Shown here: positions 1-35,815 of the stretch, one piece after another
Numbering within the stretch: the stretch's first letter is position 1
Layout: every line of letters starts with the position of its first letter
NCBI GenBank assembly: GCA_013215275.1
Contig: JABSRF010000011.1
Location: 1 to 35,815 of the forward strand
Source of the DNA: Oligoflexales bacterium
GTDB lineage: Bacteria > Bdellovibrionota_B > Oligoflexia > Oligoflexales > Bog-1112
Length of the DNA: 35,815 bases
Direction of reading: 5' to 3'
Notes under the pieces: model-generated
What the model saw: the letters and a program-made list of their open reading frames with translations, nothing else
What the model was told of the DNA's origin: nothing
Databases searched by the model: none
Position numbers and translations under genes: made by a program

Positions 1-632
1 ATAGAGTGCGCAATCACAGGCCAGAACTGTACTAAAATTAACCATCAATGGGTAGGACATTTATTTGGAGTTACCTGACCAGGTTCTAATCCGTTGTTGT
101 TTGGGCAATAATCAGCATAAATGTCTTGCTAATTTATTGATAGGAATGGTACCTAATAAGGGTCCTTGAAGAGGAAGCTAAACCGCCCAGAAAATATCCT
201 ATCTTTTAGGGATGATGCGCCGAACTTAAATTAATTGAAAAGAATGAGTTGTTTAGGTTTTCAAAGCATTTATACTAGAGTGACAGACAAGTACTCCTGG
301 TGATTTTTAAGTCTTCTGAAAGAGCGGACATTTTTTTGCATTAATAAACAGACATTTTGCAGCCGTGGGCAGTGACAATTGCTCGATGATCGTATCAGTG
401 TAGTTATTCCTGTTGTATTGTGCGACTGCAGAGTTTTAATTTTCAAAAATTAATTGAGACCTAGGATTTGCGGGAGGGTTTTTCAGTTAGCGCTGGACCT
501 GATTTAGATGCCCGTACCAATAAGCAGTTGCCCATTATTTTGTTGTTAGATGTGTCCTTTACGACACTTGGCTAATTTATTGATTTCTCAAATTAATTAG
601 ATATCTTATGTCTTTTTTTATGAGGTGATTCC
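1..632. other. non-coding leader region with short repeats
   Basis: No convincing open reading frame, tRNA or rRNA is visible here. It holds a 14-base direct repeat (GCTAATTTATTGAT at 128-141 and 571-584) and three copies of AAATTAATT followed by GA or AG (228-238, 447-457, 590-600). The region is AT-rich and may be the extended regulatory region of the gene at 633, or the distal side of an upstream gene outside the window. Confidence 0.5.
580..607 (+). promoter_or_regulatory. candidate sigma-70 promoter for the RHH-like gene
   Basis: TTGATT (580-585) and TATCTT (602-607) are separated by 16 bases, which would start transcription about 20 bases before the ATG at 633. The -35 element lies inside the second copy of the 14-base direct repeat, and an AAATTAATT site fills the spacer, so a repressor bound there would block the promoter. 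The match is moderate and untested. Confidence 0.35.
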
Positions 633-1190
633 ATGGACAAGGAAAACAAAGTGGATTTAAGCGAAAACCTAGGTGAAGGACAAACGGCAGTGCCTTCAGG
701 GGGATCTGCTGAACAAGGGTCTGTGAGTCAGGTGAAGGACCAAAAACAGGATCAGACTGAAGGGAATAAGAGCCAGCAAAAGGAAGAAAATACCCTTACA
801 ATAAGTTTGTCCAGGGCTTTGTATAAAAAGCTGAAAAGCAAAGCACAGGTGGAAGGGGTAAGTCCCCAAGATTTGGCCAGCGAATTACTAGCAGAAGGCC
901 TTGTTTTACGAGCTTGGGAAATCATGGAGAGAAAATCGACCATGAGGCAAAGCTCCAACGGAGGTAATTATAACCAAGGTGGTAATCGTTCCGGTCACAA
1001 GCAGTCGTATAGGAACGGCTCTCAAAATGGTTATAATAGAGGACGTTCGTCTAATCACAGTAACTCAAATTACAGCAATTCAAATAACAATAATGGCCAA
1101 AATAGACGAGGTAACTACCAGCATATTTTAGAGGATAGTGCTAATTTTCTAGAATATGTAAGAAACCAAGAAAAAAAAAATAATACCTAG
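633..1190 (+). CDS. RHH-like protein with Asn/Gly/Ser-rich disordered tail
   Basis: Hypothetical protein of 185 residues; I do not recognise a named family. Residues 1-50 are acidic, polar and probably disordered. Residues about 53-94 read as a beta-strand plus two helices (TLTISLSRALYKKLKSKA, then a second helix), which resembles the ribbon-helix-helix fold of small DNA-binding regulators. Residues 107-163 are low-complexity Asn, Gly, Ser, Arg and Tyr, like RNA-binding or phase-separating tails. A short acidic/aromatic segment ends the protein. The start is secured by GAGGTGATT just upstream of the ATG. A run of ten adenines lies four codons before the stop and could be slippery. speE starts 32 bases later on the same strand, so the two may be co-transcribed. 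The DNA-binding role is an inference from fold-like pattern only. Confidence 0.7.
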   Translation: MDKENKVDLSENLGEGQTAVPSGGSAEQGSVSQVKDQKQDQTEGNKSQQKEENTLTISLSRALYKKLKSKAQVEGVSPQDLASELLAEGLVLRAWEIMERKSTMRQSSNGGNYNQGGNRSGHKQSYRNGSQNGYNRGRSSNHSNSNYSNSNNNNGQNRRGNYQHILEDSANFLEYVRNQEKKNNT

Positions 1191-1222
1191 CGTTATAGAG
1201 ATAGAAAGGTTCGAGATTTAAG

Positions 1223-2071
1223 ATGGTGAATTGGTTTAAAGAAATTGAGAATGGTGAAATCGAGTATGGATATGCATTCCAGAATAAACTATTTGAGGAT
1301 CAGTCCAAGTTTCAGGATATCAAGGTAATCGATACCTTAGCTTATGGGAAGATGCTGATTTTAGATGATTTTGTAATGCTTACTGAGTCAGATGAGTTTG
1401 TTTATCATGAGTTGATTGCTCACATCCCTGTATGTTTTCACAAAAACCCTGAGAAGGTTGTGGTCATCGGTGGGGGAGATGGTGGCACGGTACGAGAACT
1501 AGTCAAGCACGATTGCGTAAAGGAGGTTGTGCTTTGCGAAATAGATGGGATGGTTGTTGATGTCTGCAAAAAGTTTTTCCCAGCAGTAGCTGGAAGGCTT
1601 GACCATCCTAAAGTCGACGTCAAAGTAGGTGATGGGATGGACTATGTTCGCGGTCTTGAGAATGAAGTAGACCTGATGATCATTGACTCCACAGATCCAG
1701 TGGGACCAGGAGAAGGGCTCTTCACTGGGGAGTTTTATCAATCTGTGTCAAAAGCGTTGAAGCCAGATGGAATGATGGCCGCACAGTCTGAATCTCCATG
1801 GGCCGAAGCAGAGTTTCTCAACCGTATTCACAATAATATTCGTACTGGTTTTGATTATGTTAGACCATATATCGCCTCTGTTCCAACGTATCCAAGAGGT
1901 TTATGGTCATGGACACTGGGCTCTCATTCGCCAATTGATGTTGATCAGTTTGACTACGAACGCTTTGCAAAAGTAGAGCCCGAGCTAAACTACCTTAGTG
2001 ATGCAATGGTTAGAGCTTGTTTTGAACTGCCAAAGTTCTACCGAAAAAAGCTCAGTGTTTTGAATCAGTAA
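1223..2071 (+). CDS. speE: spermidine synthase (polyamine aminopropyltransferase)
   Basis: Transfers the aminopropyl group of decarboxylated S-adenosylmethionine to putrescine to give spermidine, in the cytoplasm. At 282 residues it has the usual family length. Visible signatures are the N-terminal beta domain (about 1-60), the glycine-rich nucleotide loop GGGDGG at 83-88, the acidic E106-I-D108 that contacts the aminopropyl donor, GDG at 136-138, and the catalytic loop D155-S-T-D158-P-V-G-P. It lies 32 bases downstream of the RHH-like gene; no SpeD or arginine decarboxylase gene is present in the window, so the substrates must be made elsewhere. The Shine-Dalgarno region (AAAGG, well upstream) is weak. 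Family assignment is firm; putrescine as acceptor is the family default, not proven here. Confidence 0.95.
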   Translation: MVNWFKEIENGEIEYGYAFQNKLFEDQSKFQDIKVIDTLAYGKMLILDDFVMLTESDEFVYHELIAHIPVCFHKNPEKVVVIGGGDGGTVRELVKHDCVKEVVLCEIDGMVVDVCKKFFPAVAGRLDHPKVDVKVGDGMDYVRGLENEVDLMIIDSTDPVGPGEGLFTGEFYQSVSKALKPDGMMAAQSESPWAEAEFLNRIHNNIRTGFDYVRPYIASVPTYPRGLWSWTLGSHSPIDVDQFDYERFAKVEPELNYLSDAMVRACFELPKFYRKKLSVLNQ

Positions 2072-2076
2072 TCTTT

Positions 2077-2094
2077 CTCTGAAAATGTTCAGAG
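2077..2094. terminator. hairpin in the speE/orn convergent gap
   Basis: CTCTGA (2077-2082) and TCAGAG (2089-2094) form a perfect six-base stem with a six-base loop, extendable by a G-U and an A-U pair. It sits between the two convergent stop codons, where a bidirectional terminator is expected. Neither strand has a U-tract, so it may only block transcripts weakly or protect 3' ends. Confidence 0.4.
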
Positions 2095-2102
2095 GAGTCA
2101 GT

Positions 2103-2645
2103 CTAGCAAGGCTCTTTGAAGCACTTTTCTTTATAAAACTTCAGTTCCCCAATACTTTCTTCAATGTCTGTTTTGGCCCTATGAGCCTCTTTTTTACGAA
2201 AGGGCTCAAGTTGATACCATGAGTTCGCCAGGATTTTTATGGTGCTAACATCGAGCAGACGATAATGAAGGTACTGATCAATCTTCGGCATGTGTTTTAT
2301 AATGAACCTGCGATCTTGCCAAATTGAGTTACCTGCCAATATACCTTTTTTTTCTTTCACATGAGTTTTTATAAATTCTAAGGTCTCAGCCTCTGCTTCC
2401 AGGGAGCTTGTACTGGACTGTTGGACTCTTTCTATGAGACCGGACTTCTTGTGATGAGTCTGATTCCACTCATCCATAGCCTCTAGCACTTTATTATCTT
2501 GATGAATCACTAATTCCGGACCATGAGCAATGATATCGAGGTCAGAGTTAGTGATAATCGTTGCAATTTCTAGGATTTTATCATGCTCAGGAATAAGGCC
2601 TGTCATTTCCAGGTCCATCCAAACTAATCTAAGGTCTTCACTCAC
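2103..2645 (-). CDS. orn: oligoribonuclease (DEDDh 3'-5' exonuclease)
   Basis: Degrades 2-5 nucleotide RNA fragments, including pGpG from c-di-GMP breakdown, to mononucleotides. The DEDDh catalytic set is complete: D11 and E13 in the DLEMTGL motif, D111, H155 and D160 in AHRAKTDIEES. I prefer the GTG start at 2645. It is preceded by AGGAG at 10 bases, gives 180 residues (Escherichia coli Orn has 181) and places the first catalytic Asp at residue 11. A longer frame from ATG 2687 exists, but has no Shine-Dalgarno sequence and adds 14 unconserved residues. The gene converges on speE. With a PilZ protein close by, it fits a cell that uses c-di-GMP, although orn is broadly housekeeping. Confidence 0.95.
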   Translation of the reverse strand: MSEDLRLVWMDLEMTGLIPEHDKILEIATIITNSDLDIIAHGPELVIHQDNKVLEAMDEWNQTHHKKSGLIERVQQSSTSSLEAEAETLEFIKTHVKEKKGILAGNSIWQDRRFIIKHMPKIDQYLHYRLLDVSTIKILANSWYQLEPFRKKEAHRAKTDIEESIGELKFYKEKCFKEPC

Positions 2646-3106
2646 TACTTCATTACTCCTGTAAATCGAATTACCATAATAGGACAAGAATAAACTATCA
2701 TCGGTGCCTAATCTACTGTCCCATCATTTTTTTGGATCAAAAAATCAGCTACACTTAAAATAAATTGATGTTTGAATTCATAAGGTAGCATGCTTTGGTA
2801 TATAACACTTATTTATTATGTCATTGATGTATAATCTTGCTAAGGATCCATCCAACTCAAAGAATTACTTGGCGTAAGCTTTTTCTATGGACCGAACTTG
2901 TGCCACCTGTTCCAAATTCAAAAAGTATAGCTCATGAGGCAAGCAAAACTATCTATTATTTAGTAAATCATAGACAGACCTTCAGGCAGAGCTATATTAT
3001 TTCAGCCTTAAGGACGTTGGTTGGTCTTGAAGTCGAACCAGGTTCATATTGCTCTCATCATGGTAATGAGATATCAACTTAGACGATAATGATTCTAGGA
3101 GTATTC
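2646..3106. other. intergenic region between orn and the dsbA-like gene
   Basis: This gap should contain the divergent promoters for orn and the dsbA-like gene. A TATAAT box at 2830-2835 faces right but has no good -35 partner. A near-palindrome of T6 and A6 around GGATC lies at about 2727-2745. An 81-codon TTG-initiated frame (2837-3082) ends just before the next gene, but has no ribosome binding site or recognisable protein features, so I do not call it. Confidence 0.4.
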
Positions 3107-4198
3107 ATGAAACTACGAAGATTGCCTAAATTTTGGTCACATGGCTTTGCATGCCTTGCAGGGCTTTTATTTACTATTGGCTACTCAGCAACTAGTTTTT
3201 CTAGTGAAGCCTTTAAAATTAATGGCAAGGTCACGACTATTAAAGACCTCATGAAGCTTGAGCAGGACAAGTTCTATCGTCTGGAAAAAGATAAGTATCA
3301 GTTGGTCGAAGGGCTTGCTAGGCAAGCTTATTTAGATGCCTATTTTAAAAAAATGGGAGATGAGCAGAAAATTTCTGCAGAGGCTGCCCGTGAGCGCTAT
3401 ATGGACAAGCACGCAAAGTTTACGGATAAAGAAATCAAAGAGACCCTGGAAAAATACAAGAATCATCCAAAATTGAAAGAGTTGCCAAAAGCAGAGCAAG
3501 AAAACCAGATTCGTAATCTATTGAGAGTGCGCGGCGAGCAGGAAATAGTTCAAGCAATCATTAGTGACGGCTTAAAGGCTGGGCATCTGCAAATCAGTTA
3601 TCCGAGACCAAGTGAGCCTGTTTATGATATTAAAGTGACCTCCGATGACCACGTTCGTTATCATGCAGATGATAGCAAAGCAACAAAGCCAGTGGCTTGC
3701 AAGGGCGATGACTGTGCGATCACAATTGTTGAGTACTCAGAGTACCAATGCCCATTTTGTGCTAGGGTTATACCCACAACAAAGCAGATTCTCAAGGAGT
3801 ATGAAGGTAAGGTAAGGTGGATTACAAGAGACTTTCCTTTGGACTTTCATGATCGAGCAAGGCCTGCAGCAATTGCGGCTCATTGTGCTGGATTCCAGGG
3901 GAAATTTTGGGATATGTACAGTATTTTGTTCGAAAACCAAAGAAGCCTTTCTGATAAAGATTTAGATGGCTATGCTGATAAAATCAAATTGGATAAGGAC
4001 AAATACCTGAAATGTGTTGCTGAGCCACAAAAAGCCATTGCTTTGATTGATAAGAACATGCAGACAGGTGCGAGCGTAGGGGTGACCGGAACGCCTGCTT
4101 TCTTCATCAATGGCAGAAGGTTGTCAGGAGCATTGCCATTCGAAGAATTTAAAAGAGTGATTGATGATGAGCTGGCGAAAGCTGGCAAAAAGTCCTAA
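3107..4198 (+). CDS. exported DsbA-like thiol oxidoreductase with chaperone-like N-terminus
   Basis: Periplasmic thiol-disulfide oxidoreductase of the DsbA/thioredoxin-fold family. Residues 1-30 are a signal peptide with basic n-region and hydrophobic core. Residues about 36-165 are charged and helical and resemble the SurA-type N-terminal domain of peptidyl-prolyl isomerases. The thioredoxin domain follows (about 195-360) with active site C215-P-F-C218 in the context EYQCPFC and a cis-proline loop GVTGTP at P330. An extra pair C-K-G-D-D-C just before the domain could form a structural disulfide. The start is the ATG at 3107, with AGGAG six bases upstream; an in-frame ATG 18 bases earlier has no site. 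The arrangement suggests a foldase that binds unfolded clients and oxidises them. Whether it oxidises or isomerises disulfides cannot be read from sequence. Confidence 0.9.
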   Translation: MKLRRLPKFWSHGFACLAGLLFTIGYSATSFSSEAFKINGKVTTIKDLMKLEQDKFYRLEKDKYQLVEGLARQAYLDAYFKKMGDEQKISAEAARERYMDKHAKFTDKEIKETLEKYKNHPKLKELPKAEQENQIRNLLRVRGEQEIVQAIISDGLKAGHLQISYPRPSEPVYDIKVTSDDHVRYHADDSKATKPVACKGDDCAITIVEYSEYQCPFCARVIPTTKQILKEYEGKVRWITRDFPLDFHDRARPAAIAAHCAGFQGKFWDMYSILFENQRSLSDKDLDGYADKIKLDKDKYLKCVAEPQKAIALIDKNMQTGASVGVTGTPAFFINGRRLSGALPFEEFKRVIDDELAKAGKKS

Positions 4199-4253
4199 TT
4201 CCTCCCCTTTTCAATATTACGAGAAAAAAATCTCAAGATCCTCATAATAAATT

Positions 4254-4275
4254 CCGATTGACTATCGGATTTTAT
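4254..4275 (+). terminator. weak intrinsic terminator after the dsbA-like gene
   Basis: CCGAT (4254-4258) and ATCGG (4264-4268) form a five-base stem, one more T-A pair extends it, and ATTTTATT follows. It lies between the dsbA-like stop and the PilZ ribosome binding site. The stem is short, so termination may be partial. Confidence 0.4.
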
Positions 4276-4292
4276 TATTGAAGGAGCTTCAC

Positions 4293-4721
4293 ATGGGAAG
4301 CAGGGACAACCGCCGTGTTATCAGAGTTAATCTAGAATCCCCTTTGACTGTCACCATGGGTTCGATTGGCTCTGATGTGAAATACAACCTCATGACTCGT
4401 GATATCTCGAATAATGGCTTTTTCTTAGACTTTGAAAAACCTGGTAGGTTTCCATTTACGCCCTCTAGTATCATGGAAGTATGGATGGCTATTGGGAATG
4501 ATGAGACCATTTTTTTTAACGGAAAAATGGCTCGGGTTGTTTATCCTACCGATGAATCTGCTAAGGTGACAGGTCCGGGCATTGCTATAAGAATTATTCA
4601 GATAGAGCCCCAACAGGAACAAGATCTCATAGACTTCATTAGTAAAAAAATTGAGGAACAAGAAAGGGAGCACGGTGCTGCGCTCACCCATGGTGAAGGC
4701 CCCAGTGGTGCTGCATCCTAG
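4293..4721 (+). CDS. PilZ domain protein (c-di-GMP receptor)
   Basis: Single-domain PilZ protein of 142 residues, a cytoplasmic effector that binds cyclic di-GMP. Both halves of the ligand signature are intact: R7-x-x-x-R11 in RRVIR and D37-x-S39-x-x-G42 in DISNNG, followed by the beta-barrel strands through about residue 115. The C-terminal 25 residues are polar and probably flexible. The ATG at 4293 is chosen because AAGGAG lies six bases upstream; a TTG five codons earlier has none. The gene appears monocistronic, between a weak terminator and a strong one. Its partner is unknown. The flagellar genes further along make motility control a reasonable guess, but nothing here links them directly. 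Confidence 0.9.
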   Translation: MGSRDNRRVIRVNLESPLTVTMGSIGSDVKYNLMTRDISNNGFFLDFEKPGRFPFTPSSIMEVWMAIGNDETIFFNGKMARVVYPTDESAKVTGPGIAIRIIQIEPQQEQDLIDFISKKIEEQEREHGAALTHGEGPSGAAS

Positions 4722-4776
4722 AACTCCCTGATTTTTAAGATAGTTATTCCTAATTAACGGCTTCAAATTTTTAACG

Positions 4777-4797
4777 AACAAGCAGAGGCTTGTTTTT
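4777..4797 (+). terminator. intrinsic terminator after the PilZ gene
   Basis: AACAAGC (4777-4783), loop AGAG, GCTTGTT (4788-4794), then further T residues: a perfect seven-base stem with a tetraloop and U-tract. This is a convincing Rho-independent terminator for the PilZ transcript. Confidence 0.8.
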
Positions 4798-4841
4798 CCA
4801 CAGCATTTTTGCGTTTTCCTTTAAAATTAACTTTTATCCAC

Positions 4842-4847
4842 TATACT
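4842..4847 (+). promoter_or_regulatory. candidate -10 box for the NamZ-like gene
   Basis: TATACT lies about 43 bases before the preferred ATG, just after the PilZ terminator. A weak TTTAAA sits 16 bases upstream as a possible -35. Position and -10 quality support it; the -35 does not strongly. Confidence 0.35.
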
Positions 4848-4889
4848 TGAAGGCTTAGACATTGTTCAATGATAAGGGATGGAAGCCTC

Positions 4890-6086
4890 ATGGATGCTAA
4901 AACGCTTGTTGGTCTGGAAGTACTAAGAAGGAACCCCAAACTATCTGATAAGTGGGGAAGGTGCGGTTACCTTTGTAACCAAGCGTCTGTTTGCGCTGAT
5001 TGGACTCATGGTATTCCTATCATTGAGAATGCCCTAGGAGATCGGTTCGTCAGTCTTTTTGGCCCTCAGCATGGCTTTTTAGGCACCGTGCAGGATAATA
5101 TGATTGAAACAGAGCATGCCACTCATGTTCCCAGTGGGAGGCCTATTTATAGTCTTTATTCCGAAACTCGCGAGCCTACTGAGGAGATGGTCGAAGGACT
5201 AGATACCATCATTGTGGACTTACAGATCACTGGTTGCCGGATCTATACTTTTAAATCTACCATCGCTGGTTGCTTGCGAGCAGCTAAGAAGCATCACAAG
5301 AGGGTTGTGGTTCTAGACCGACCAAATCCCGTTGGCGGGCGATATATTGAGGGACGTTGTGTCGAGCCGGAGCTGTATTCGTTTGTTGGTCAATTTACGA
5401 TGCCAATGCGCCATGGGTTATCTGCAGGTGAAGCTGCACAATTCTTTAACTCTAGCATCGGGGCGGAGTTGGAGGTGGTAGCTTTAGAGGGCTGGGATGC
5501 AAAAGCCGACTGGCGAAGCACTGGTAGGCCTTGGGTCTTAACCTCGCCAAACTTACCAAGTATCGACCCTGTTTACGTTTACCCTGGAATGGTCATTTTT
5601 GAGGGTACAAACATTTCAGAGGGGAGGGGAACTGGCTTACCATTTCAATTTATTGGTGCCCCCTTTTGCCAAGATACGAGCAAACTCATTGAACGCATAA
5701 AGGATTATTGTGGAGGAGAGCCCCAAGGAGTGCATTTGCGGGAGGCTGTTTTCGAGCCTACCTCAGGCAAATGGATGGGACAAGAGTGTCGTGGGGTGCA
5801 GTTACATATTACTGAGCCTGCAAAGATTGCAAGCTATCAGTTAGCATTGTCTTTGCTAAAATCTTTCTGGGATCTCAGTGATGGGCGGTTTGAGTTTAGC
5901 CAGCAACCATATGAGTATGAATTTGATACCTTGCCAATCAAGATAATACTTGGGGGAGCTGAGTCAGTGAAGCACCTCGAAAACTACTCTAAGAGTGATC
6001 CTTATTGGCTATGGGGCGTAGAAGAGTACCTTAAACAAGTCGCACCGATGCTAAAGTATGACAGAAAACAAGAAATTCTTGTCTAG
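4890..6086 (+). CDS. DUF1343 / NamZ-like exo-N-acetylmuramidase family protein
   Basis: Member of the DUF1343 family, whose characterised representative NamZ removes terminal N-acetylmuramic acid from the non-reducing end of peptidoglycan fragments. The N-terminal half has the family's landmarks: CGYLCNQASV, the LFGPQHGFLG block, an acidic T-E-H-A-T segment, PIYSLYSETREPTEEM and VDLQITGCRIYTF. The central PNPVGG and GLSAGEAA blocks also match. The ATG at 4890 is preferred because GGAAG lies just upstream; ATG 4869 would add seven residues. Length is 398 residues. No signal peptide or lipobox is visible, so the protein looks cytoplasmic, which suits recycling of imported muropeptides better than attack on the intact wall. 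Activity is inferred from the family only. Confidence 0.85.
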   Translation: MDAKTLVGLEVLRRNPKLSDKWGRCGYLCNQASVCADWTHGIPIIENALGDRFVSLFGPQHGFLGTVQDNMIETEHATHVPSGRPIYSLYSETREPTEEMVEGLDTIIVDLQITGCRIYTFKSTIAGCLRAAKKHHKRVVVLDRPNPVGGRYIEGRCVEPELYSFVGQFTMPMRHGLSAGEAAQFFNSSIGAELEVVALEGWDAKADWRSTGRPWVLTSPNLPSIDPVYVYPGMVIFEGTNISEGRGTGLPFQFIGAPFCQDTSKLIERIKDYCGGEPQGVHLREAVFEPTSGKWMGQECRGVQLHITEPAKIASYQLALSLLKSFWDLSDGRFEFSQQPYEYEFDTLPIKIILGGAESVKHLENYSKSDPYWLWGVEEYLKQVAPMLKYDRKQEILV

Positions 6087-6112
6087 CTCGTTTAGTAATG
6101 CAGCTTTCGCTG

Positions 6113-7645
6113 TTAATTATGCTGCTTGTTCCAATTCTGTTCATGAGTTATGAGGCGGAAGTGTGGCAAATCCTTCACGTTGATGAAGTCGTTATCCTCC
6201 TGAGCCATTTTTTGAAGGCTGGGATTGAGCTGTATAGCCTTATTTAACACAATAAGCGCTTCGTCAGAACGATTTGTTAGGGCAAGCACACAAGCCTTAT
6301 TGTACAGAGCGATGGAGTCATCTGGGTTGACCCTGACGGCATCATCAAATGCTCTAATGGCCTTGTGATAAGATTTCATTTTGTAGTAAATCAAGCCAAG
6401 AGAGGTTAAAAACTGTCCGTTATCAGGGCTCAGAATCGCAGCGTTTTTGTAACTCTTGGCAGCAAGTTCATGCTTTTCCAATTTTTCTGAATATAGCTCT
6501 CCTAGAAGTGCATACAGCTCCGCATGACCTGGTAGCTCTATAACAATGTCTTCCAGTACTTTTGCAAGTTGGCTGTAAGCTTCGTTTTCCTTATAAATAT
6601 TGAGAATGTACTCGACAGTGAGCACTTGATGTGAGGTTGAGGTAATGGACGTGACATAATGCTTTTTAGCAAGTTCAAAGTTCTTTGCGGCTAACTCCAC
6701 AGATCCTAGGTGAGCATGAATGACGGCAAAGACATCGTCGCTACCTGAGTTAACATTCAGTGCTTCGTTTAAAAGCCTGCGAGCTAGCTCAGGCTTTCCA
6801 AGGTGTTTGTATAGAAGCACTGCATCGTTAATGATTGCCTCTTCGAATTTTGGATCAGCTTTTCTAAGCTGAGCGTATATCTTATGAGCTTTCTCATACT
6901 GCTGCAACTCGGTGAGCGTTACAGCCTGCATCAGATCAAACAGTGGGTGAGGGTGTTTTTTATTCCAAGTTGCAAGAGCATTTTGTAGACGCTCGTTTTC
7001 GTAATTAGCTTGCAGGATGGTAATCACATATGGAATTACAATATCTTTTTTTGTTGCTGGGCGGGTTAAACACGAATCGATGCTATCAAGGATTGAATTA
7101 AAGTCCTGTCCTGCTGCAGATAAGCGTGCTTTCGTAAACTCAAACCTCCAAGATGGGTCTGCCTTCAGTTTTGCTTTTGCATCGCTTAAAATAGCCATTC
7201 CATGGTCAGACTTTCCCATGATGTCCATAATGTCTGCTAATGCCAAATAGCCAAATTCTTCATTAGGAGCCAGTTGTATCGCCTGAACAGCGAGAGCAGA
7301 TGCTTTTTGTAACAAGTCAAGGCGACTTGGGTTTAGAGCAAATATTCGAACATAGGTATGAGAAAGGACATAGTGGTGATAAGCACTCTTTGGATTCTTC
7401 TGGATTTCTCTGACGATCTTGTTTTCGAGAGAAATCAGTTCCGAGTCATCAGAAATCCAGGCCTCCGTTTCCAAGTCTTCTGTCGCAGCTAAGCTGTTTT
7501 GCTGAAAAGCAATGAATCCAAGTGCGGTAATAATTAGAAATCTTCTTGCTAATACTAGTGATTTTCTTAGAGTCTTAGGAGTGAACCGTTCAGCCCTGCT
7601 CGCAAAGAGCATAACAATATTTAGCGAATTCAGATAACAGGGCAT
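6113..7645 (-). CDS. exported or membrane-anchored TPR protein
   Basis: 510 residues, made mostly of tetratricopeptide repeats from about residue 60 to 490. The clearest consecutive repeats are near the C-terminus, with typical W/L-G-Y-A-P spacing such as GLIYYKMKSYHKAIRAFDDA. Near the N-terminus a basic segment is followed by a hydrophobic stretch (about 35-50: RRFLIITALGFIAF) and AA, which reads as a late signal peptide or single anchor. The start is supported by CGGAG five to six bases upstream of the ATG. TPR proteins act as scaffolds; no catalytic domain is present. The leader carries an exact sigma-28 -10 sequence, which suggests expression with late flagellar genes. A role in motility or envelope assembly is therefore possible but unproven. 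Confidence 0.8.
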   Translation of the reverse strand: MPCYLNSLNIVMLFASRAERFTPKTLRKSLVLARRFLIITALGFIAFQQNSLAATEDLETEAWISDDSELISLENKIVREIQKNPKSAYHHYVLSHTYVRIFALNPSRLDLLQKASALAVQAIQLAPNEEFGYLALADIMDIMGKSDHGMAILSDAKAKLKADPSWRFEFTKARLSAAGQDFNSILDSIDSCLTRPATKKDIVIPYVITILQANYENERLQNALATWNKKHPHPLFDLMQAVTLTELQQYEKAHKIYAQLRKADPKFEEAIINDAVLLYKHLGKPELARRLLNEALNVNSGSDDVFAVIHAHLGSVELAAKNFELAKKHYVTSITSTSHQVLTVEYILNIYKENEAYSQLAKVLEDIVIELPGHAELYALLGELYSEKLEKHELAAKSYKNAAILSPDNGQFLTSLGLIYYKMKSYHKAIRAFDDAVRVNPDDSIALYNKACVLALTNRSDEALIVLNKAIQLNPSLQKMAQEDNDFINVKDLPHFRLITHEQNWNKQHN

Positions 7646-24242: not shown

Positions 24243-24788
24243 GTGTCTCTAAATCAACATAGTGTTCTAAAAAGCGTAAAAAATGAGCTCAAGAGCCTTG
24301 AGCAGTACGCTGAGCTATTCTTGGATATTTTTGCAAAGGAAGAGCAAGCGATTATTCATCATGATATCAATAGTTTAGAGAAAATCGGGCAGCAAAAGAA
24401 TCAGCTGCTATTAAGCTTGCAAAATGGCATCACGAATGTCGCTAAATTATGCACTCAATTGTTCCACCCTCCTTTAGATCCTCCTAAGTCATTTAGTGAA
24501 ATGCAAGGGTACCTTAAATCTTATACAAGTGGCCTCACTTCAGATAGTTATCAACTAAAAGCACTATCGGAGCATTTAATCACCAGGCTTAGTGTCCTGA
24601 TCGAAACCTATCGAGATATCAAACCTCAAATCGAGAAAAATAGGTTTATCATAGCTCGGCTGCTGCGTAACCATCAGGAGAGCTACCGGTTCTGGAGTGA
24701 GCTAAAGAAGGAAAATAGCTCAAGCTACAATGCAAAGGGAGCAAAGAAGAGCCCGTCTACCATCTCACAGGTGTTTGCTAAAGCATAG
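24243..24788 (+). CDS. flgN: flagellar export chaperone FlgN
   Basis: Cytoplasmic chaperone for the hook-filament junction proteins FlgK and FlgL, both encoded directly downstream. The protein is almost wholly helical, with SVLKSVKNELKSLEQYAELFLDIFAKEEQAI matching the FlgN N-terminal helix that begins the family, and a C-terminal region rich in charged and aromatic residues. The GTG at 24243 is preferred because AGGTAG lies upstream; a TTG at 24213 overlaps the flgM stop but has no site. Length from GTG is 181 residues. Sequence conservation in FlgN is low, so the call leans on gene position between flgM and flgK. Confidence 0.82.
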   Translation: MSLNQHSVLKSVKNELKSLEQYAELFLDIFAKEEQAIIHHDINSLEKIGQQKNQLLLSLQNGITNVAKLCTQLFHPPLDPPKSFSEMQGYLKSYTSGLTSDSYQLKALSEHLITRLSVLIETYRDIKPQIEKNRFIIARLLRNHQESYRFWSELKKENSSSYNAKGAKKSPSTISQVFAKA

Positions 24789-24795
24789 GTCATAT

Positions 24796-26220
24796 ATGGC
24801 AGGTCTGTTTCATTCGCTAAATATCGGATCTGAATCCCTTTATGCAAATCGGCAAGGGATTGATACCACTGCTCACAATATTGCCAATGCTCAAACGGAA
24901 GGATACTCCAGACAGAGGGTTAAGCTGACTCAGCGAGATCCTATGGAGAAATCGGGTCTCTTAATCGGTAATGGGGTCTACGTGGGCTCTATTGATCGTT
25001 TTCATAATAAATTCATCGAACGACAAATTAACTTAGCTCACAATGATGTCGGTGATAGTGAAGCGAGAATGGATTCCCTTACCAGGCTTGGAGAAATTTA
25101 TAGCCCGGAACTTAATAATAGCCTCGCAAATGAACTGAATAACTTCTTTGCTTCCTGGCAAAACCTTTCTAAATACCCCGAAGAGTTAACGGTACGGACA
25201 CAAGTTAAAGAACAGGGTGAGAATATTGCAGATGCTTTCCGTCGTATTGATTCAGAAGTGAGAAGGCAACGAGGGGGCATCAATGAATACATAAAAATGA
25301 CCGCTGAAGAAGCAAGCGAAACCATCTCAACCATTGCCAACCTTAATGATCAAATCAGGCAGACCGAGGTGGGGGTGCGTAACCCCTCAAATGACCTTAG
25401 GGATCAGCGTGATCGCTTGGTCAGGAAGCTAAGCACCTTAATTGATATGAATTATTATGAAGACGCCGATGGTATGGTGACGATTCACGGTCCAGGTGGA
25501 GCGCAGCTGGTTGACCGCGGGAGAGCTGCAAGTGTTGAGGTCAGGCAAAATGGAGAAAACCAGGGTCTTTTTGATATTATTATTGTGGACTCTGAAGATA
25601 GTTCAGAAAGAAATGTTACCCAAGCGATCAATGGTGGACGCCTCAAAGGCTTGCTGAATATACGCGATGTGGTGTCTGCGAGCCTCCTAGATAGCAATAA
25701 TGAAATGGCAACAAAGTTTGTCGAGTTGGTTAATGGCAATCATCGAAGAGGCTATGGTCTAGAGCAGTTTAGTAGCTCCAATGGACGAAATTTTTTTGAT
25801 TCGGTTGCTGATCCGAATTTTGCAGCACAGAATATAAAGCTCTCCTTAGATGTGTTAAATTCAACTGATGCTATTTCCGCTTCGAGTTTACAGAGTTCTC
25901 CAGGCGACAATGTGGTCGCTAACAATATTGCGCGCATTCAGTCTTCAAAGGTGTTTACAGATACTGACGCCACCTTGAATGAGTATTATGCTGACTACGT
26001 TGGTGTCTTAGGTATGGAGACGGTCAGGGTGCAGCAGGTGAAGGAGTCCGATCAAATTATTATGGCAGACCTTCAATCAAGGCGTGAGGCTGTTGCAGGA
26101 GTGTCATTGGATGAGGAGGCCACAAATCTTATCCGTTGGCAGACTGCCTTCACAGCGTCTTCAAAGGTGGTCACCACTGTCGATGAAATGTTGCAAACGG
26201 TACTAAACTTAAAACGCTGA
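24796..26220 (+). CDS. flgK: hook-associated protein 1 (FlgK)
   Basis: First junction protein between hook and filament. From the ATG at 24796 it has 474 residues. The N-terminus (FHSLNIGSESLYANRQGIDTTAHNIANAQTEGYSRQRVKL) is diagnostic, as is the C-terminal SLDEEATNLIRWQTAFTASSKVVTTVDEMLQTVLNLK. The central region contains the coiled segment TIANLNDQIRQTEVGVRNPSNDLRDQRDRLVRKLS, standard for FlgK. AGGT lies six bases before the start; the open frame extends 22 codons further into flgN but is unconserved there. It lies 7 bases after flgN. At 474 residues it is shorter than the E. coli protein (547), mostly in the central domain. Confidence 0.96.
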   Translation: MAGLFHSLNIGSESLYANRQGIDTTAHNIANAQTEGYSRQRVKLTQRDPMEKSGLLIGNGVYVGSIDRFHNKFIERQINLAHNDVGDSEARMDSLTRLGEIYSPELNNSLANELNNFFASWQNLSKYPEELTVRTQVKEQGENIADAFRRIDSEVRRQRGGINEYIKMTAEEASETISTIANLNDQIRQTEVGVRNPSNDLRDQRDRLVRKLSTLIDMNYYEDADGMVTIHGPGGAQLVDRGRAASVEVRQNGENQGLFDIIIVDSEDSSERNVTQAINGGRLKGLLNIRDVVSASLLDSNNEMATKFVELVNGNHRRGYGLEQFSSSNGRNFFDSVADPNFAAQNIKLSLDVLNSTDAISASSLQSSPGDNVVANNIARIQSSKVFTDTDATLNEYYADYVGVLGMETVRVQQVKESDQIIMADLQSRREAVAGVSLDEEATNLIRWQTAFTASSKVVTTVDEMLQTVLNLKR

Positions 26221-26237
26221 GGAGTGTGACTAGGTAG

Positions 26238-27137
26238 ATGCGTGTTTCTGAAAGACAAAAATATTGGGTTGCGAATCGGCGCATAGAAAAGGGGCGCACC
26301 GATAATACGGGGGCCCTCGATATTCTTTCGACACAAAAACGCATAAATAAGCTTCATGATGACCCGATTGGTGTTGTCCGCAGCCTGAAATTAAAGGATC
26401 GTCTTTCTGAAATCAAGGCGTTCAAGGAAAATATTGATTACTCCAAAGGCTTTTTAGATGTGACTGAAACAGCAATTTCAAACCTGCATCAACGGATAGA
26501 AAGAGCTCAAGAGCTTGCAATTTCAATGGCAAATGATACCTATGATGGGATTAATCGTAGTATCACTGCGAAGGAAGTTAAGGAGTTAATGAATGAGGTA
26601 AGCTCCCTAGCAAATAGTAAGTATGGAGCAAAGTATGTGTTTTCTGGCTTTCGTAGCCTCTCCCCAGCAGTCGATTTAGAGGGTAACTTTTTAGGTGATG
26701 ATGGGCAGATCTTCCTACAGATTGGAGAGGAGCAGTATAAGCGAATCAACATACCGGGAAGGGAGTTGTTTGAAGCAAACCCTGAGGAGCGTATGGAAGG
26801 GCACTTCAACCTTATCGATGCCTTAGGTCTGCTCTTACACGGTCTTAACCACGATGATAAAGAAGCGATCTACAAAAGTATTGGAGAATTTAGCTTTCAA
26901 CTAGATAAGCTCTCCAGCTTCCAGGCAAGTGTCGGGGCAACTTGGAAGGCCATAGAGGATGCAGATCAAAAGCTTGATTATGATCAATTGCAAAAAACTA
27001 CTTTTCTCTCAAAGATTGAGGATGCCGATATATACAAGGCAACTTCAGACTTCAAAAGGACGGAGGCTGTGCTGCAGAGTACCTTGTTAGCTTCCAATAA
27101 GCTTCTTCAGCCCTCTCTGCTCAACTTTTTGCAATAA
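26238..27137 (+). CDS. flgL: hook-associated protein 3 (FlgL)
   Basis: Second junction protein, flagellin-like at both ends. 299 residues. The N-terminal half shows DILSTQKRINKLHDDPIGVVRSLKLKDRLSEIKAFKENIDYSKGFLDVTETAISNLHQRIERAQELAISMAND, the FlgL D0/D1 pattern. SKYGAKYVFSGFRSLSPAVD marks the FlgL central start. The C-terminal helix ends LQSTLLASNKLLQPSLLNFL. GAGGAG lies 13 bases upstream and AGG is also just before the ATG. It is the last operon gene; only three bases separate its stop from that of the convergent sthA, so no dedicated terminator fits between them. Confidence 0.95.
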   Translation: MRVSERQKYWVANRRIEKGRTDNTGALDILSTQKRINKLHDDPIGVVRSLKLKDRLSEIKAFKENIDYSKGFLDVTETAISNLHQRIERAQELAISMANDTYDGINRSITAKEVKELMNEVSSLANSKYGAKYVFSGFRSLSPAVDLEGNFLGDDGQIFLQIGEEQYKRINIPGRELFEANPEERMEGHFNLIDALGLLLHGLNHDDKEAIYKSIGEFSFQLDKLSSFQASVGATWKAIEDADQKLDYDQLQKTTFLSKIEDADIYKATSDFKRTEAVLQSTLLASNKLLQPSLLNFLQ

Positions 27138-31342: not shown

Positions 31343-32515
31343 ATGAGCCTTCCCCATAGTAGTCCCATACCTGATTTTTTTTGTATTAAAGACCTTTGGA
31401 CAGATGAGCAGAGGCTCGTCGAGAAAACAGTTCAAGAGTTTGTTGCAAACGAAGCTCAGCCCTACATTCAGGATGCTTTTCGCCAGGAGACCTTCCCAAG
31501 CCAGCTTATACCAAAGCTTGGTGAGCTAGGCCTGATTGGATCAAATTTGACTGGTTATGGGCTCCCAGGTATGGACCAGATTTCATACGGTATCGTGATG
31601 AAAGAGCTCGAACGCTGTGACTCTGGTTTACGGAGCTTTGCTTCCGTCCAGGGAGCCTTAGTGATGTACCCGATTCATGCCTTTGGGAGTGAAGAGCAGA
31701 AGCAAGAATGGTTGTCACCTTTAGCAAAAGGTGAGCTCATTGGATGTTTTGGGCTTACAGAGTCTGAAGGAGGGTCAGATCCGTCTGCGATGAAAACTAA
31801 GGCAGAGGACAAGGCGGACCACTGGTTACTAAATGGGGCCAAAATGTGGATTACCAATGGTAATTTAGCCTCCATTGCAGTCGTTTGGGCAAAAACTGCT
31901 GATGGAGTTCATGGGTTCTTGGTCCCTATGAAAGCAAAAGGGCTCAAGGTTACGAAAATGATAGGTAAGCTATCCCTGAGAGCGTCGGTAACCTCTGAAC
32001 TTTACTTTGATAATGTGAAACTCCCAAAAAGTGCTATATTACCGAAAGCCCGTGGCCTGAAAAGTGCCCTGGCTTGTTTGTCTCAAGCTCGTTACGGCAT
32101 AGCTTGGGGAGTGATAGGAGCTGCGGAAACCTGTTTTGACGAAGTCACGGCCTATGTAAAAGAACGAATTTTGTTTGGGAAGCCACTGGCAACCAAACAG
32201 CTTATCCAACGCAAGCTTGCTTTGATGCTTTCAAAAATTACCCAGGCTCAGCTACTTGCTTACCGACTTGGGCAGCTAAAACAGTCAGGAAGCCTTCACT
32301 TCTCTCAGGTGAGCTTAGCAAAGCAAAATAACTGTGAGGTAGCCTTAGAGGTTGCACGAACCTGCAGGGATATGCTCGGGGCTAACGGAATCATGGATGA
32401 GTATAAAACTATGCGGCATATGTGCAACCTTGAAACGGTGAGCACTTATGAGGGAACAAGTGATATCCACTTGCTCATCATGGGCTCACACATAACTGGA
32501 ACTCCTGCATTTTAG
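31343..32515 (+). CDS. gcdH: glutaryl-CoA dehydrogenase-type acyl-CoA dehydrogenase
   Basis: FAD acyl-CoA dehydrogenase that oxidises and decarboxylates glutaryl-CoA to crotonyl-CoA in lysine and tryptophan breakdown. 390 residues. Signatures are SGLRSFASVQ (R97, equivalent to the glutarate-binding Arg), CFGLTESEGGSDPSAMKT, the flavin-binding WITNG, RILFGKPLATKQLIQ, and the catalytic base E370 in LETVSTYEGTSDIH, which is close to known GcdH. GGAG lies seven bases before the ATG. It ends the lipA run; its stop interlocks with that of the convergent gene in TTAG. Grouping with lipid and lipoate genes is probably positional rather than functional. Confidence 0.92.
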   Translation: MSLPHSSPIPDFFCIKDLWTDEQRLVEKTVQEFVANEAQPYIQDAFRQETFPSQLIPKLGELGLIGSNLTGYGLPGMDQISYGIVMKELERCDSGLRSFASVQGALVMYPIHAFGSEEQKQEWLSPLAKGELIGCFGLTESEGGSDPSAMKTKAEDKADHWLLNGAKMWITNGNLASIAVVWAKTADGVHGFLVPMKAKGLKVTKMIGKLSLRASVTSELYFDNVKLPKSAILPKARGLKSALACLSQARYGIAWGVIGAAETCFDEVTAYVKERILFGKPLATKQLIQRKLALMLSKITQAQLLAYRLGQLKQSGSLHFSQVSLAKQNNCEVALEVARTCRDMLGANGIMDEYKTMRHMCNLETVSTYEGTSDIHLLIMGSHITGTPAF

Positions 32516-33543
32516 AAATGGTCGATTGCAGCCTTAGGAGGTTCACATTCGACATGAAAATAACGAAACCATCCACCATATTTTTTTATTCTCTGTGTTG
32601 ATCCCAAGGATTCATCACAGAGGTATTGAACAGTGGAAGGGGCTGTCATGTTCATGATTGGCCTGCTAGATTTAAAAGGGCTTAGAGAGCCTCTTTCATC
32701 GAGGAAGAAGGGAACAGGGGTTTTGGCCTTTGCCCTTAGCCTGCATAGGCCAAGTTTAGAATTTGTGTGATCTAATGGCAGGCATCGGGCTAGTACTTGT
32801 TGCTTTTGAGGCACTTGAATTCTCCTAAACCAATCCAAGCATGATGGATCTCCCATATCCCTTATTAGCTTGTTGCGAAGCCTTGCACGGGAGTCTGGTA
32901 AGGTGCATGACTGGGCAGGAAAAGCCAAGGATAGGTTGACCTTGTAATCCATTAGAGCTTGATGTGCAGCTTCTTCATAGCCTTTTTGATACTCTAAAAA
33001 GCATGAGCGTACATGAATATCAGGTTTGTCTGGGGAGCCTACCCACAAGAGGTCTGAGGTTAAATAGATACTACTGAGATTTTCTAATTCAGCGTCGCTT
33101 TTTAAAGGTGATCCAAATAGGTTTATTTTTTTTACATCGAAGTATTTTGTTTTTAGATAATTCTTATAGAGGCAGAGTGTTGCAGCTTGATCCTGCTTGA
33201 AGAAAGGAAAAATTGTCTTCATTTTTTCTAGAAAACTTTGGTCTCTTGAAGGTTTTAGAATCAAAACCTCAATTTTATATCCCATACTAAAAATCAGTGA
33301 CTGGCCCTGAATTTCTAAGCTGATGGGGTCAGACGAGGTAAACTCTTGCTCGTAAGCTTTGATAAGGCTCATTTTGGGTGTCATAGAAGCAGGGATACCC
33401 TTGGTTTCAAAGTACTCTCTTAGGATTTTAGTTTGAAAGTCATTGCCTACACGGCTTACAGCTTCTTGGAAGGTTGGGTTAGGAGGAGTTGTGCATGAAA
33501 AATGAAGCATTAAGATAAGCACCTTAAGAAACCTTCGAGCCAT
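32512..33543 (-). CDS. cysteine-rich putative lipoprotein of unknown function
   Basis: 343 residues from the ATG at 33543, which has GAGGT six bases upstream; the frame extends 31 codons further, but that part is not signal-like. The N-terminus MARRFLKVLILMLHFSC has a basic start, hydrophobic core and a candidate lipid-attachment Cys17, although His at -3 makes the lipobox weak. The mature part has eight further cysteines, concentrated in the C-terminal half (positions near SCTLPD, PSCLDW, ARCLPL, GLCRLR, YLCDES, VECEPP), enough for four disulfides. No repeats or catalytic motif. It converges on gcdH with a four-base stop overlap. I do not recognise a family; an exported, disulfide-bonded lipoprotein is the best description. 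Confidence 0.65.
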   Translation of the reverse strand: MARRFLKVLILMLHFSCTTPPNPTFQEAVSRVGNDFQTKILREYFETKGIPASMTPKMSLIKAYEQEFTSSDPISLEIQGQSLIFSMGYKIEVLILKPSRDQSFLEKMKTIFPFFKQDQAATLCLYKNYLKTKYFDVKKINLFGSPLKSDAELENLSSIYLTSDLLWVGSPDKPDIHVRSCFLEYQKGYEEAAHQALMDYKVNLSLAFPAQSCTLPDSRARLRNKLIRDMGDPSCLDWFRRIQVPQKQQVLARCLPLDHTNSKLGLCRLRAKAKTPVPFFLDERGSLSPFKSSRPIMNMTAPSTVQYLCDESLGSTQRIKKYGGWFRYFHVECEPPKAAIDHF

Positions 33544-33842
33544 AAGCTTACCTCTGTCTTTACAAAAAATCGTTACCAATAAAAACTCCACACAAAGATT
33601 ATAGTCGTAAACGCATACAAATTTAATGTTAACCATAAAAGAGTTTGGTTAATGTTGAATCAACAAATCTCACCCTTTTTTTTAAGGCGTTGAAAACTAA
33701 TAGCAAAAAAAAATATTGTTGTTTTTTATTAAATAAAAATTGCAATTCAATCCAATACATCATAAACAAAATTGTGATTACGGTACTGGGCCCTTAGTAC
33801 ACATAACTTGATTACTCAACATCTGTGGAATGGAGTGCTGTC
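33544..33842. other. AT-rich intergenic region upstream of the vWA genes
   Basis: About 300 bases without a gene, rich in poly-A/T between 33670 and 33740. It holds a candidate rightward promoter with an operator-like palindrome at 33783-33800. Confidence 0.5.
33772..33800 (+). promoter_or_regulatory. candidate promoter and palindrome upstream of the first vWA gene
   Basis: TTGTGA (33772-33777), 17-base spacer, TAGTAC (33795-33800). An inverted repeat GTACT (33783-33787) / AGTAC (33796-33800), with GGGCCC between the arms, overlaps the -10. Spacing is ideal but the -10 match is poor, so this may be an operator rather than the core promoter. Confidence 0.3.
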
Positions 33843-34772
33843 ATGAATGTTATACGAAGTCTCCCTGTAGCGTTTGGAATTGCTAGTCTAGCTATAGCAG
33901 GTATAGCTGCTGCTAAACCTGTAAAAAATAAGTACGGAGTTACCCAGAACGGTAAAATGCCTGAACCAGTTCGCATGGAACTTGCACAAGAGGTCGTGCA
34001 AACAAAAACGAATATGTCAAAAGAACACTACGAGTATATTGTTAGAGACCCTCAAAGAGCTCAGAATGATCAGGAAAGAATTACAGGTCTTTCAGCAAGG
34101 GAAGTCTTTATTTTAGTCGATCGTAGTGGCTCTATGAATGCTAACGATGAAAACCCTACAGGTAGGTCAACTGGTCAAAGGTGGACTCGGTGGGATTCTG
34201 CACGGGTAGCAGCAGAAAGCATTGCTGAGCTTTCTTTAAGCTTAGATCAAGATGGTAAAGTTGACATAATGCTATGGGATGGAGATCGCTATAGCAAGTT
34301 GCAGCACCGTTATGAGTCTATGACAAATGTGTCTGACATTAAGAGATTTTTCGAAAACAATAGGCCTCAAAGGGGAAGTACTCCTTTAGCAGAAGCATTG
34401 GAAGAGGTTTATGACACTCATCTAGCACAATTGTTGAGAGCCTCCGAGCCTTTCACAGTTGTTGTGTTAACAGATGGACAGCCTAATGATCCATCAAAAG
34501 TTAAGAACCTATTCAAGCGTATCATCCAAGAAAACAACTTAGAGCAGCCAGGACGAGAAACTTTAGCAGCCTTTTCTTTCGTACGCATGGGTGATGATCA
34601 AGGAGCGATCAATTTTCTTCAGGATTTAGATGATAATTTAATCTCTCAGCTACGTGTGAACGTTGATATTGTCGATACTAAAGAAGATAACTTCCTTTTT
34701 GGTACTGGTATGTATACAGGTCGAGAAGGTGTCGGTCCTTTTGCCCTTTTCTGGGATGCTCTATACGACTAA
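33843..34772 (+). CDS. exported von Willebrand factor A domain protein (copy 1)
   Basis: 309 residues with a clear signal peptide cleaved near AAA-KP (residue 24), so the protein is periplasmic or secreted. The vWA domain (about 85-285) has a complete metal-ion-dependent adhesion site: D93-R-S95-G-S97, T180 in STPLAEAL, and D211 in LTDGQPND. The late segment GDDQGAINFLQDLDDNL and VDIVDT marks a specific vWA subfamily. A 28-residue tail after that (TGMYTGREGVGPFALFWDALYD region) is absent from copy 2. The ATG at 33843 is chosen because GGAG lies seven bases upstream. It is probably a metal-dependent protein-protein binder; no enzyme domain is attached. Function unknown. Confidence 0.88.
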   Translation: MNVIRSLPVAFGIASLAIAGIAAAKPVKNKYGVTQNGKMPEPVRMELAQEVVQTKTNMSKEHYEYIVRDPQRAQNDQERITGLSAREVFILVDRSGSMNANDENPTGRSTGQRWTRWDSARVAAESIAELSLSLDQDGKVDIMLWDGDRYSKLQHRYESMTNVSDIKRFFENNRPQRGSTPLAEALEEVYDTHLAQLLRASEPFTVVVLTDGQPNDPSKVKNLFKRIIQENNLEQPGRETLAAFSFVRMGDDQGAINFLQDLDDNLISQLRVNVDIVDTKEDNFLFGTGMYTGREGVGPFALFWDALYD

Positions 34773-34798
34773 TAAAAAGTTCTTACGCACTAAAATTT

Positions 34799-34830
34799 AA
34801 AGTCCTCTTTTTAAAAGGAGGGCTTTTTTT
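34799..34830 (+). terminator. strong intrinsic terminator between the vWA genes
   Basis: AAAGTCCTC (34799-34807) pairs with GGAGGGCTTT (34817-34826) over about nine base pairs including one G-U, followed by further T residues to 34830. It ends just 14 bases before the next start codon. Confidence 0.8.
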
Positions 34831-34844
34831 AATGGAGTCAGTAA

Positions 34845-35666
34845 ATGCGAATAAAAAATATGGCTTTAAATATTATTGTTATGGCCTTGCTTAGTGTCGG
34901 TGTTGTACATGCAAAGCCGATAAAAAACAAGTATGGCAAAACAGAGAATGGAAAGATGCGTTCCTCTGATCTTGAGGATCTTTCTGCAGAAGTGGTCAGT
35001 TCACAACAACAAATGAGTAATGAGCATTTTGTTGAAGTGGTGGCAGATCCTCAGAAAGCTATCAACGATCAAGAGAGATTGGCGGCACTCTCTGCTAGAG
35101 AAATTTTTATCCTAGTTGACCGAAGTGGCTCTATGGGAGCAAGTGATGAAAACCCTACTGGCCAAAGGAGTTCCCGTTGGACTCGTTGGGATTCAGCACG
35201 GGTAGCGGCAGAAAGCATTGTTGAGCTCGCTTTGTTCTTAGACATCGATAATAAGGTTGAAGTGACCCTTTGGAGTGGAAGTAGTATCAAAACTGAAGTC
35301 GTAAGCCAGATCAATGATATATCCCATCTATTTTCAAGGAACTCACCATCTGGAGGCACTCCGTTAGCAGAAGCCCTTGAAGATGTCTATAAGCGTAGGC
35401 TGAAGGGTTTGCTAAAAAGATCAGAGCCTTTCACAGTCATTATTCTTACGGACGGTGCCCCCAATGACCAAAGAAAGGTCAAAAAATTCTTCAAAAAGGT
35501 CATCAAGGATCACCACCTTGAGGATTACGGACGCGAGACTCTTGCAGCATTTTCCTTTGTTCGTATGGGTGACGACTCGGGAGCCACTCGATCCCTTCAG
35601 GATTTGGATGACAACTTAATAAGGGAATTGGGAGTAAAAGTAGACATTGTGGATACTAAACCCTAA
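34845..35666 (+). CDS. exported von Willebrand factor A domain protein (copy 2)
   Basis: 273 residues, a paralogue of the preceding protein. Signal peptide to about residue 23 (ALLSVGVVHA-KP), then the same KNKYGKTENGKM segment. The adhesion site is intact: D92-R-S94-G-S96, T172, D203. The linker DPQKAINDQERLAALSAREIFILVDRSGSM is nearly identical to copy 1, and stretches of DNA such as the codons around RVAAESI are almost unchanged, so duplication is recent. It ends at VDTKP and lacks the C-terminal tail of copy 1. GGAG lies seven bases before the ATG. A strong terminator separates it from copy 1, so it probably has its own promoter or relies on read-through. Confidence 0.88.
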   Translation: MRIKNMALNIIVMALLSVGVVHAKPIKNKYGKTENGKMRSSDLEDLSAEVVSSQQQMSNEHFVEVVADPQKAINDQERLAALSAREIFILVDRSGSMGASDENPTGQRSSRWTRWDSARVAAESIVELALFLDIDNKVEVTLWSGSSIKTEVVSQINDISHLFSRNSPSGGTPLAEALEDVYKRRLKGLLKRSEPFTVIILTDGAPNDQRKVKKFFKKVIKDHHLEDYGRETLAAFSFVRMGDDSGATRSLQDLDDNLIRELGVKVDIVDTKP

Positions 35667-35797
35667 TCAAGTGACCTTTATAATGGCGTAATTTTCAAGA
35701 TTTTCACTGGATACATGAGCAAATTCACCATATTTTTTAATTTTTCTCTATTCTGTGGTTTTATTATTCCATAAGACAAGAAAACAGAGGAGGTGAT

Positions 35798-35815
35798 ATG
35801 TTCAGTAACACAAAT
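35798..35815 (+). CDS. start of a further gene, cut by the window edge
   Basis: An ATG followed by six open codons (MFSNTN). It is preceded by AGAGGAGGTGAT, which is fully complementary to the 3' end of 16S rRNA and is the best Shine-Dalgarno sequence in the window. It lies 131 bases after the second vWA gene. Product unknown. Confidence 0.5.

What the first reader, a model, noticed from the sequence alone, without database searches (positions are those of the whole stretch)
33843..35666. Tandem exported vWA proteins from a recent duplication
Two signal-peptide-bearing vWA proteins with complete adhesion sites lie in tandem, differ in the C-terminal tail, and are followed by a new gene start. 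Exported vWA proteins without other domains may be surface adhesins or metal-dependent binders, perhaps for attachment to other cells. This is the most plausible undescribed unit in the window.
Basis: partly seen in the sequence, partly recalled or inferred. Interest (0 to 1): 0.55.

Follow-up and report, generated by a model that had tools for sequence, protein, structure and literature searches.

The report
Exported vWA pair, one IS-broken
Two old sister genes for exported metal-binding (vWA) proteins lie side by side in an uncultured bacterium, and the odd short tail of the second is damage by a jumping gene rather than a new design, so the pair is fairly ordinary.

Summary
The two genes are real. 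Gene 1 (33843-34772, 309 aa) and gene 2 (from 34845) each encode a signal-peptide-like N-terminus and one vWA domain with a complete MIDAS. (1) Gene 2 is not a natural variant: after codon DTK it runs into an insertion sequence (IS A). Its last residue, its stop codon and the 'new gene start' are IS A DNA. The missing 3' end, in frame, with a direct repeat ACTAAA and the opposite IS A end, lies at the end of contig C291. (2) The duplication is old: 59% aa identity, 40% at third codon positions, about as far apart as gene 1 is from its relative in another genus. (3) The array does not continue: the next gene encodes a TPR protein. Two other vWA copies in this genome also end in an IS, so gene 1 is the only one of four seen whole. 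The family looks like an exported offshoot of cytosolic TerF-like vWA proteins, found in 4 of 8 genomes of its taxonomic family, without conserved neighbours and without TerD in this genome. A cation-dependent binding role outside the cytosol is likely; the partner is unknown.

The parts
33843..34772 (+). vWA gene 1, the only copy of the family seen whole in this genome (309 aa)
33843..33914 (+). predicted signal peptide of gene 1 (24 aa, ends AAA before Lys25)
   Evidence: sequence, (hydropathy only)
34119..34133 (+). MIDAS DxSxS of gene 1 (D93, S95, S97)
   Evidence: identical in 9 of 9 aligned sequences
34380..34382 (+). MIDAS Thr180 of gene 1
34473..34475 (+). MIDAS Asp211 of gene 1
34799..34826 (+). 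terminator-like hairpin (12 pairs) plus T run between the two genes
34845..35660 (+). vWA gene 2, 5' part only (272 codons of host DNA), with signal-peptide-like start 34845-34913 and complete MIDAS (35118-35132, 35358-35360, 35451-35453)
35655..35660 (+). direct repeat ACTAAA at the insertion point, found again at C291:3500-3495 before the missing 3' part
35661..35815 (+). end of insertion sequence IS A; its first six bases CCCTAA give gene 2 its last Pro and stop; runs to the contig end
35798..35815 (+). ATG after GGAGGTG inside IS A, probably the start of its transposase (the 'new gene start')
   Evidence: the transposase itself is not in the contig

Best explanation
Gene 1 encodes a small exported protein: a signal peptide, a short helical region and one vWA domain with a full metal site. 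It belongs to a lineage-restricted family that branched off the cytosolic TerF-like (copine/RGLG-like) vWA proteins and acquired export. Gene 2 is an old paralogue that was cut by insertion sequence IS A at a YTAR-type target (ACTAAA). What is left encodes the vWA domain without the conserved last 30 or so residues. Shown here: the vWA family match, intact metal-site residues, the IS junctions, the in-frame missing half and the age of the duplication. Inferred: cleavage of the signal peptide and residence in the periplasm, on the surface or outside; that a divalent cation at the MIDAS bridges to an acidic side chain of a partner protein, as in other MIDAS vWA domains; and loss or weakening of gene 2 function after the insertion.
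For: IS cut: gene 2 reads ...GATACTAAA then CCCTAATCAAGTGACC; C291 reads GGTCACTTGATTAGGG then ACTAAAGAGGATAAC, which translates in frame as TKEDNFLFGTGKYRNSPFVGPFAIFWDALYD, the tail seen in gene 1. The IS A end occurs at 31 places; 29 of the 30 fetched end their contig inside it, C291 being the exception (locus lengths). 30 distinct flanks have Y at -5 and T at -4 in 30 of 30. Old paralogues. Metal site. Fold: AlphaFold2 mean pLDDT 80.4, pTM 0.81; best VIA matches Rpn10 Z 16.8 (rmsd 2.8, 180 aligned) and RGLG1/2/5 Z about 15 (rmsd 3.2-3.8, 210-221 aligned). Relationship to cytosolic TerF-like vWA: hits, and 4 of 4 such short relatives scanned exceed the PF10138 cut-off.
Against: Export rests on hydropathy and motif, not on a trained predictor or experiment. 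The hexamer ACTAAA is not unique to this pair (3 of 30 flanks), so the pairing of gene 2 with C291 rests mainly on the matching vWA halves and frame. The genome is a 710-contig draft. C291 carries IS B nested in IS A, so the two halves are not joined on one contig. No partner or ligand was found.
Confidence: 0.8

Rival explanations
1. One reading: two functional exported adhesins with naturally different tails, kept as a tandem array.
For: Both have signal-like starts and full MIDAS; the shortened gene 2 frame is free of stops up to the junction.
Against: The end of gene 2 coincides exactly with a repeat end present at 31 places, and the missing conserved tail exists elsewhere with the opposite repeat end. 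A terminator-like hairpin lies between the genes. Divergence is old.
Confidence: 0.08
2. The gene 2 truncation is an assembly chimera at a repeat, not a real insertion.
For: Draft assembly of 710 contigs; most IS A ends coincide with contig ends.
Against: 155 bases of IS A are assembled past the junction, the two halves are in frame with a shared 6-base direct repeat, and the flank fits the target consensus of the other IS A ends.
Confidence: 0.05
3. The proteins are part of a Ter-type stress or phage-defence system (TerF or TerY-P).
For: Weak PF10138 (TerF vWA) match of gene 1, 25.8 bits; the cytosolic relatives pass that cut-off.
Against: Below the 29.4-bit cut-off; no TerD found in the genome (0 of 1); no PADLOC match; no kinase/phosphatase pair beside the window genes; TerF and TerY act in the cytosol (recalled).
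Confidence: 0.06
4. Secreted factor acting on another cell (prey or host), exported by Sec and then through a secretin.
For: Signal-like N-termini without a lipobox Cys; four secretin matches over cut-off in this genome.
Against: Secretins also serve pili; no second export signal was tested; no target known.
Confidence: 0.2

Closest known systems
Cytosolic TerF-like vWA proteins of cyanobacteria and of a related family in the same class (PF10138)
   Same: vWA domain with the same DxSxS/T/D site and the GDD, LDD and DxxDTK-like motifs; about 27-35% identity
   Different: About 200 aa, no signal peptide, no 80-residue N-terminal region; over the PF10138 cut-off while the window genes are not
TerY-P triads
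   Same: TerY-like vWA with MIDAS (passages read in PMC11090510)
   Different: There next to a PP2C-like enzyme and a kinase with zinc ribbon; none beside the window genes
RGLG and copine-type (BON1) vWA domains
   Same: Predicted fold, including part of the helical region before the domain, Z about 15, 210-225 residues aligned, rmsd 3.2-3.9
   Different: Eukaryotic, 11-14% identity; no C2 or RING domain here
CglB gliding lipoprotein (NF033757)
   Same: Exported bacterial vWA; weak partial match of gene 2, 23.4 bits
   Different: Far below its cut-off of 200 bits; no lipoprotein Cys in gene 1 or 2

Membership tests
vWA domain superfamily | Curated profile match | tested here: met
   PF13519 34.6 and 27.6 bits, cut-off 27
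vWA domain superfamily | Complete MIDAS (DxSxS, T, D) | tested here: met
   Invariant in 9 of 9 aligned sequences
vWA domain superfamily | vWA fold | tested here: met
   Predicted model of gene 1, pLDDT 80.4; solved vWA domains at Z up to 16.8, rmsd 2.8, 180 aligned
TerF-like vWA (PF10138) | Score above the gathering cut-off | tested here: not met
   Gene 1 25.8 bits, cut-off 29.4; gene 2 not listed
Ter system | TerD in the genome | tested here: not met
   0 of 1 genome, with the control ringing in 2 of 14; genome 94.5% complete
TerY-P triad | Neighbouring PP2C and Ser/Thr kinase genes | tested here: not met
   None among the 8 other window genes scanned; the far side of gene 2 leads to C291 with a TPR protein
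CglB | NCBIfam equivalog cut-off | tested here: not met
   23.4 of 200 bits
Sec-exported protein | Cleavable signal peptide | tested here: inconclusive
   Hydrophobic core and AxA-like site in gene 1 and gene 2; no trained predictor
Insertion sequence (IS A) | Multiple copies with precise ends and a direct repeat at the target | tested here: met
   31 places, 30 distinct flanks, ACTAAA on both sides of gene 2
Insertion sequence (IS A) | Transposase | not testable with these tools
   Contig ends 18 bases after the likely start; no other copy of that start in the genome

The most novel reading that the evidence does not exclude
A vWA lineage that elsewhere works in the cytosol was re-addressed outside the cell in one bacterial family, alongside ABC1-type kinase-like proteins with signal-like starts in three of the genomes that carry the exported vWA (G000, G002, G004). 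Together they could form a vWA-kinase signalling or effector set that works in the periplasm or in another cell.
Probability: 0.07. Interest if true: 0.55.

Novelty: new member of a known kind. Interest (0 to 1): 0.17.

Why it matters
It corrects the annotation: the apparent variant tail and new gene are the scar of a transposable element, so nothing should be built on the tail difference. What remains is a small, narrowly distributed family of exported vWA proteins with no assigned partner, a modest lead for people studying envelope biology of this poorly cultured group.

Tried and rejected
Other half of the C129 copy: a pattern for its expected junction with the other IS B end found nothing. 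Viral contigs: 27 stretches matched a pattern, none confirmed. Plasmids: three cyanobacterial VWA proteins at 30-35% over 64-65% of the query. Phages: five Gordonia phage records at 28%. PDB by sequence: no match. PADLOC: none; PHROGs: weak matches of unknown function. Seven-row tree: all inner branches open, so no order of duplication is claimed. Conserved neighbours: the all-against-all comparison of ORFs from 15 stretches found, between genomes, only the vWA genes themselves, antisense shadows of them and partial ABC-ATPase similarities. Naming IS A as IS701-like would rest on a recalled target preference only, so it is left unnamed; a paper search for that found nothing.

Full report
What is there. 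The window is the whole of contig C13 of a 710-contig draft genome, 94.5% complete. Its last two genes encode proteins of one family. Gene 1 starts best at ATG 33843 (309 aa), gene 2 at ATG 34845. Each has a hydrophobic N-terminus ending in an AxA-like site before Lys-Pro, a region of about 60 residues, and one vWA domain above the Pfam VWA_2 cut-off. The five MIDAS residues are identical in all 9 sequences aligned. A terminator-like hairpin with a T run at 34799-34826 separates the genes, so they may not form one transcript.

Gene 2 is broken by an insertion sequence. Gene 1, the C129 paralogue and the two closest relatives end in a conserved tail (DIxDxKxDNxLFGTxxYxGxxxVGP...); gene 2 stops right after DTK plus one Pro. 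The bases after its ACTAAA are CCCTAATCAAGTGACC..., and this repeat occurs at 31 places in the genome. Of the 30 fetched, 29 contigs end inside it (locus lengths); the exception, C291, continues into another repeat, IS B. Thirty distinct outer flanks show a YTAR-like target: Y at -5 in 30 of 30, T at -4 in 30 of 30, A at -3 in 28 of 30, R at -2 in 28 of 30; some flanks are themselves IS B ends. The 31st place (C258) had no locus and was not examined. On C291 the same end, inverted, is followed by ACTAAAGAGGATAAC, in frame with the missing tail TKEDNFLFGTGKYRNSPFVGPFAIFWDALYD and a stop. Thus the final Pro and stop of gene 2 are IS A bases, and the 'new gene start' at 35798 is inside IS A. Gene 2 and the C291 piece are the only two complementary fragments of this family found in the genome. 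The hexamer alone does not prove the pairing, because ACTAAA flanks 3 of 30 IS A ends.

The same genome holds IS B, whose end occurs at 33 places. It abuts the C129 vWA gene at its 5' side, where no signal peptide is left, the His-rich, more distant C209 vWA gene at its 3' side, and sits inside the IS A end on C291. Of four vWA copies (gene 1, gene 2 with C291, C129, C209) only gene 1 is seen whole.

Age of the pair. Gene 1 and gene 2 share 58.6% aa over 273 positions and 39.6% of third codon positions. Gene 1 to C129 is 60.8% aa and gene 1 to the G007 relative from another genus 55.8% aa; synonymous change is saturated in all six comparisons made. This is not a recent duplication. The seven-row tree is unresolved.

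The array does not go on. Beyond the C291 tail the next gene on the same strand encodes a TPR protein (L024 822-3215).

Relatives. In the phylum search 8 of 58 genomes match at E up to 1e-5; in the genome's own family 4 of 8 match (G000, G002, G004, G007). A wider search gave 10 of 383 at E up to 1e-8, the members outside the family being about 200-aa proteins. G002 and G004 have further signal-bearing members, and G004 C80 holds a broken one. The short cytosolic relatives pass the TerF-like cut-off in 4 of 4 scanned, which the window genes do not.

Fold and mechanism. The model of gene 1 matches vWA domains: Rpn10, Z 16.8, and RGLG and BON1, Z about 15, the latter covering part of the helical region before the domain. 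A shared fold does not show function. Most likely, gene 1 binds a partner protein through a cation at the MIDAS, outside the cytosol. This is inference from the domain family; no partner gene is conserved beside it. TerD was not found and PADLOC is silent. Passages of PMC11090510 and PMC7824862 describe TerY-P and TerF vWA contexts; neither context is met here. Four secretin matches leave secretion to the outside open.

Verdict. A real but ordinary pair: an old, exported, narrowly distributed vWA family, one member cut by an IS whose end was read as a variant tail and a new gene.

Noticed in passing
L023 (G000:C129) 2774-5173, minus strand: A lipoprotein-like protein of 800 aa with an ABC1 atypical kinase-like domain (PF03109, 61 bits) directly downstream of the C129 vWA gene; relatives in G002, G004, G006 and a second one in G000, some with signal-like starts. 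An exported UbiB-type kinase fold would be unusual.
   Followed up: partly
L025 (G000:C209) 3908-4666: A vWA protein with a long His-rich stretch (HEHLHEHLYKYLHVHEHD) before the domain, cut by IS B at its 3' side.
   Followed up: partly
window 35661-35815; L024 3501-3602: IS A ends are nearly identical in inverted orientation for about 100 bases, long terminal repeats for an IS; family not determined.
   Followed up: partly
L019 (G002:C128) 1396-6182: Two neighbouring Hsp70-like proteins (GIDLGTS start motif recalled, no family scan; 31% identical to each other) near an exported vWA relative.
   Followed up: no
window 32512-33636, minus strand: 374-aa protein with a lipoprotein-like FSCTTPP site (an internal start is likely); no Pfam or NCBIfam match.
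   Followed up: no
window 24730-27137: Flagellar FlgK and FlgL genes, so the organism is probably flagellated.
   Followed up: no
L023 (G000:C129) 61-2541, minus strand: DabA inorganic carbon transporter subunit (PF10070, 656 bits).
   Followed up: no
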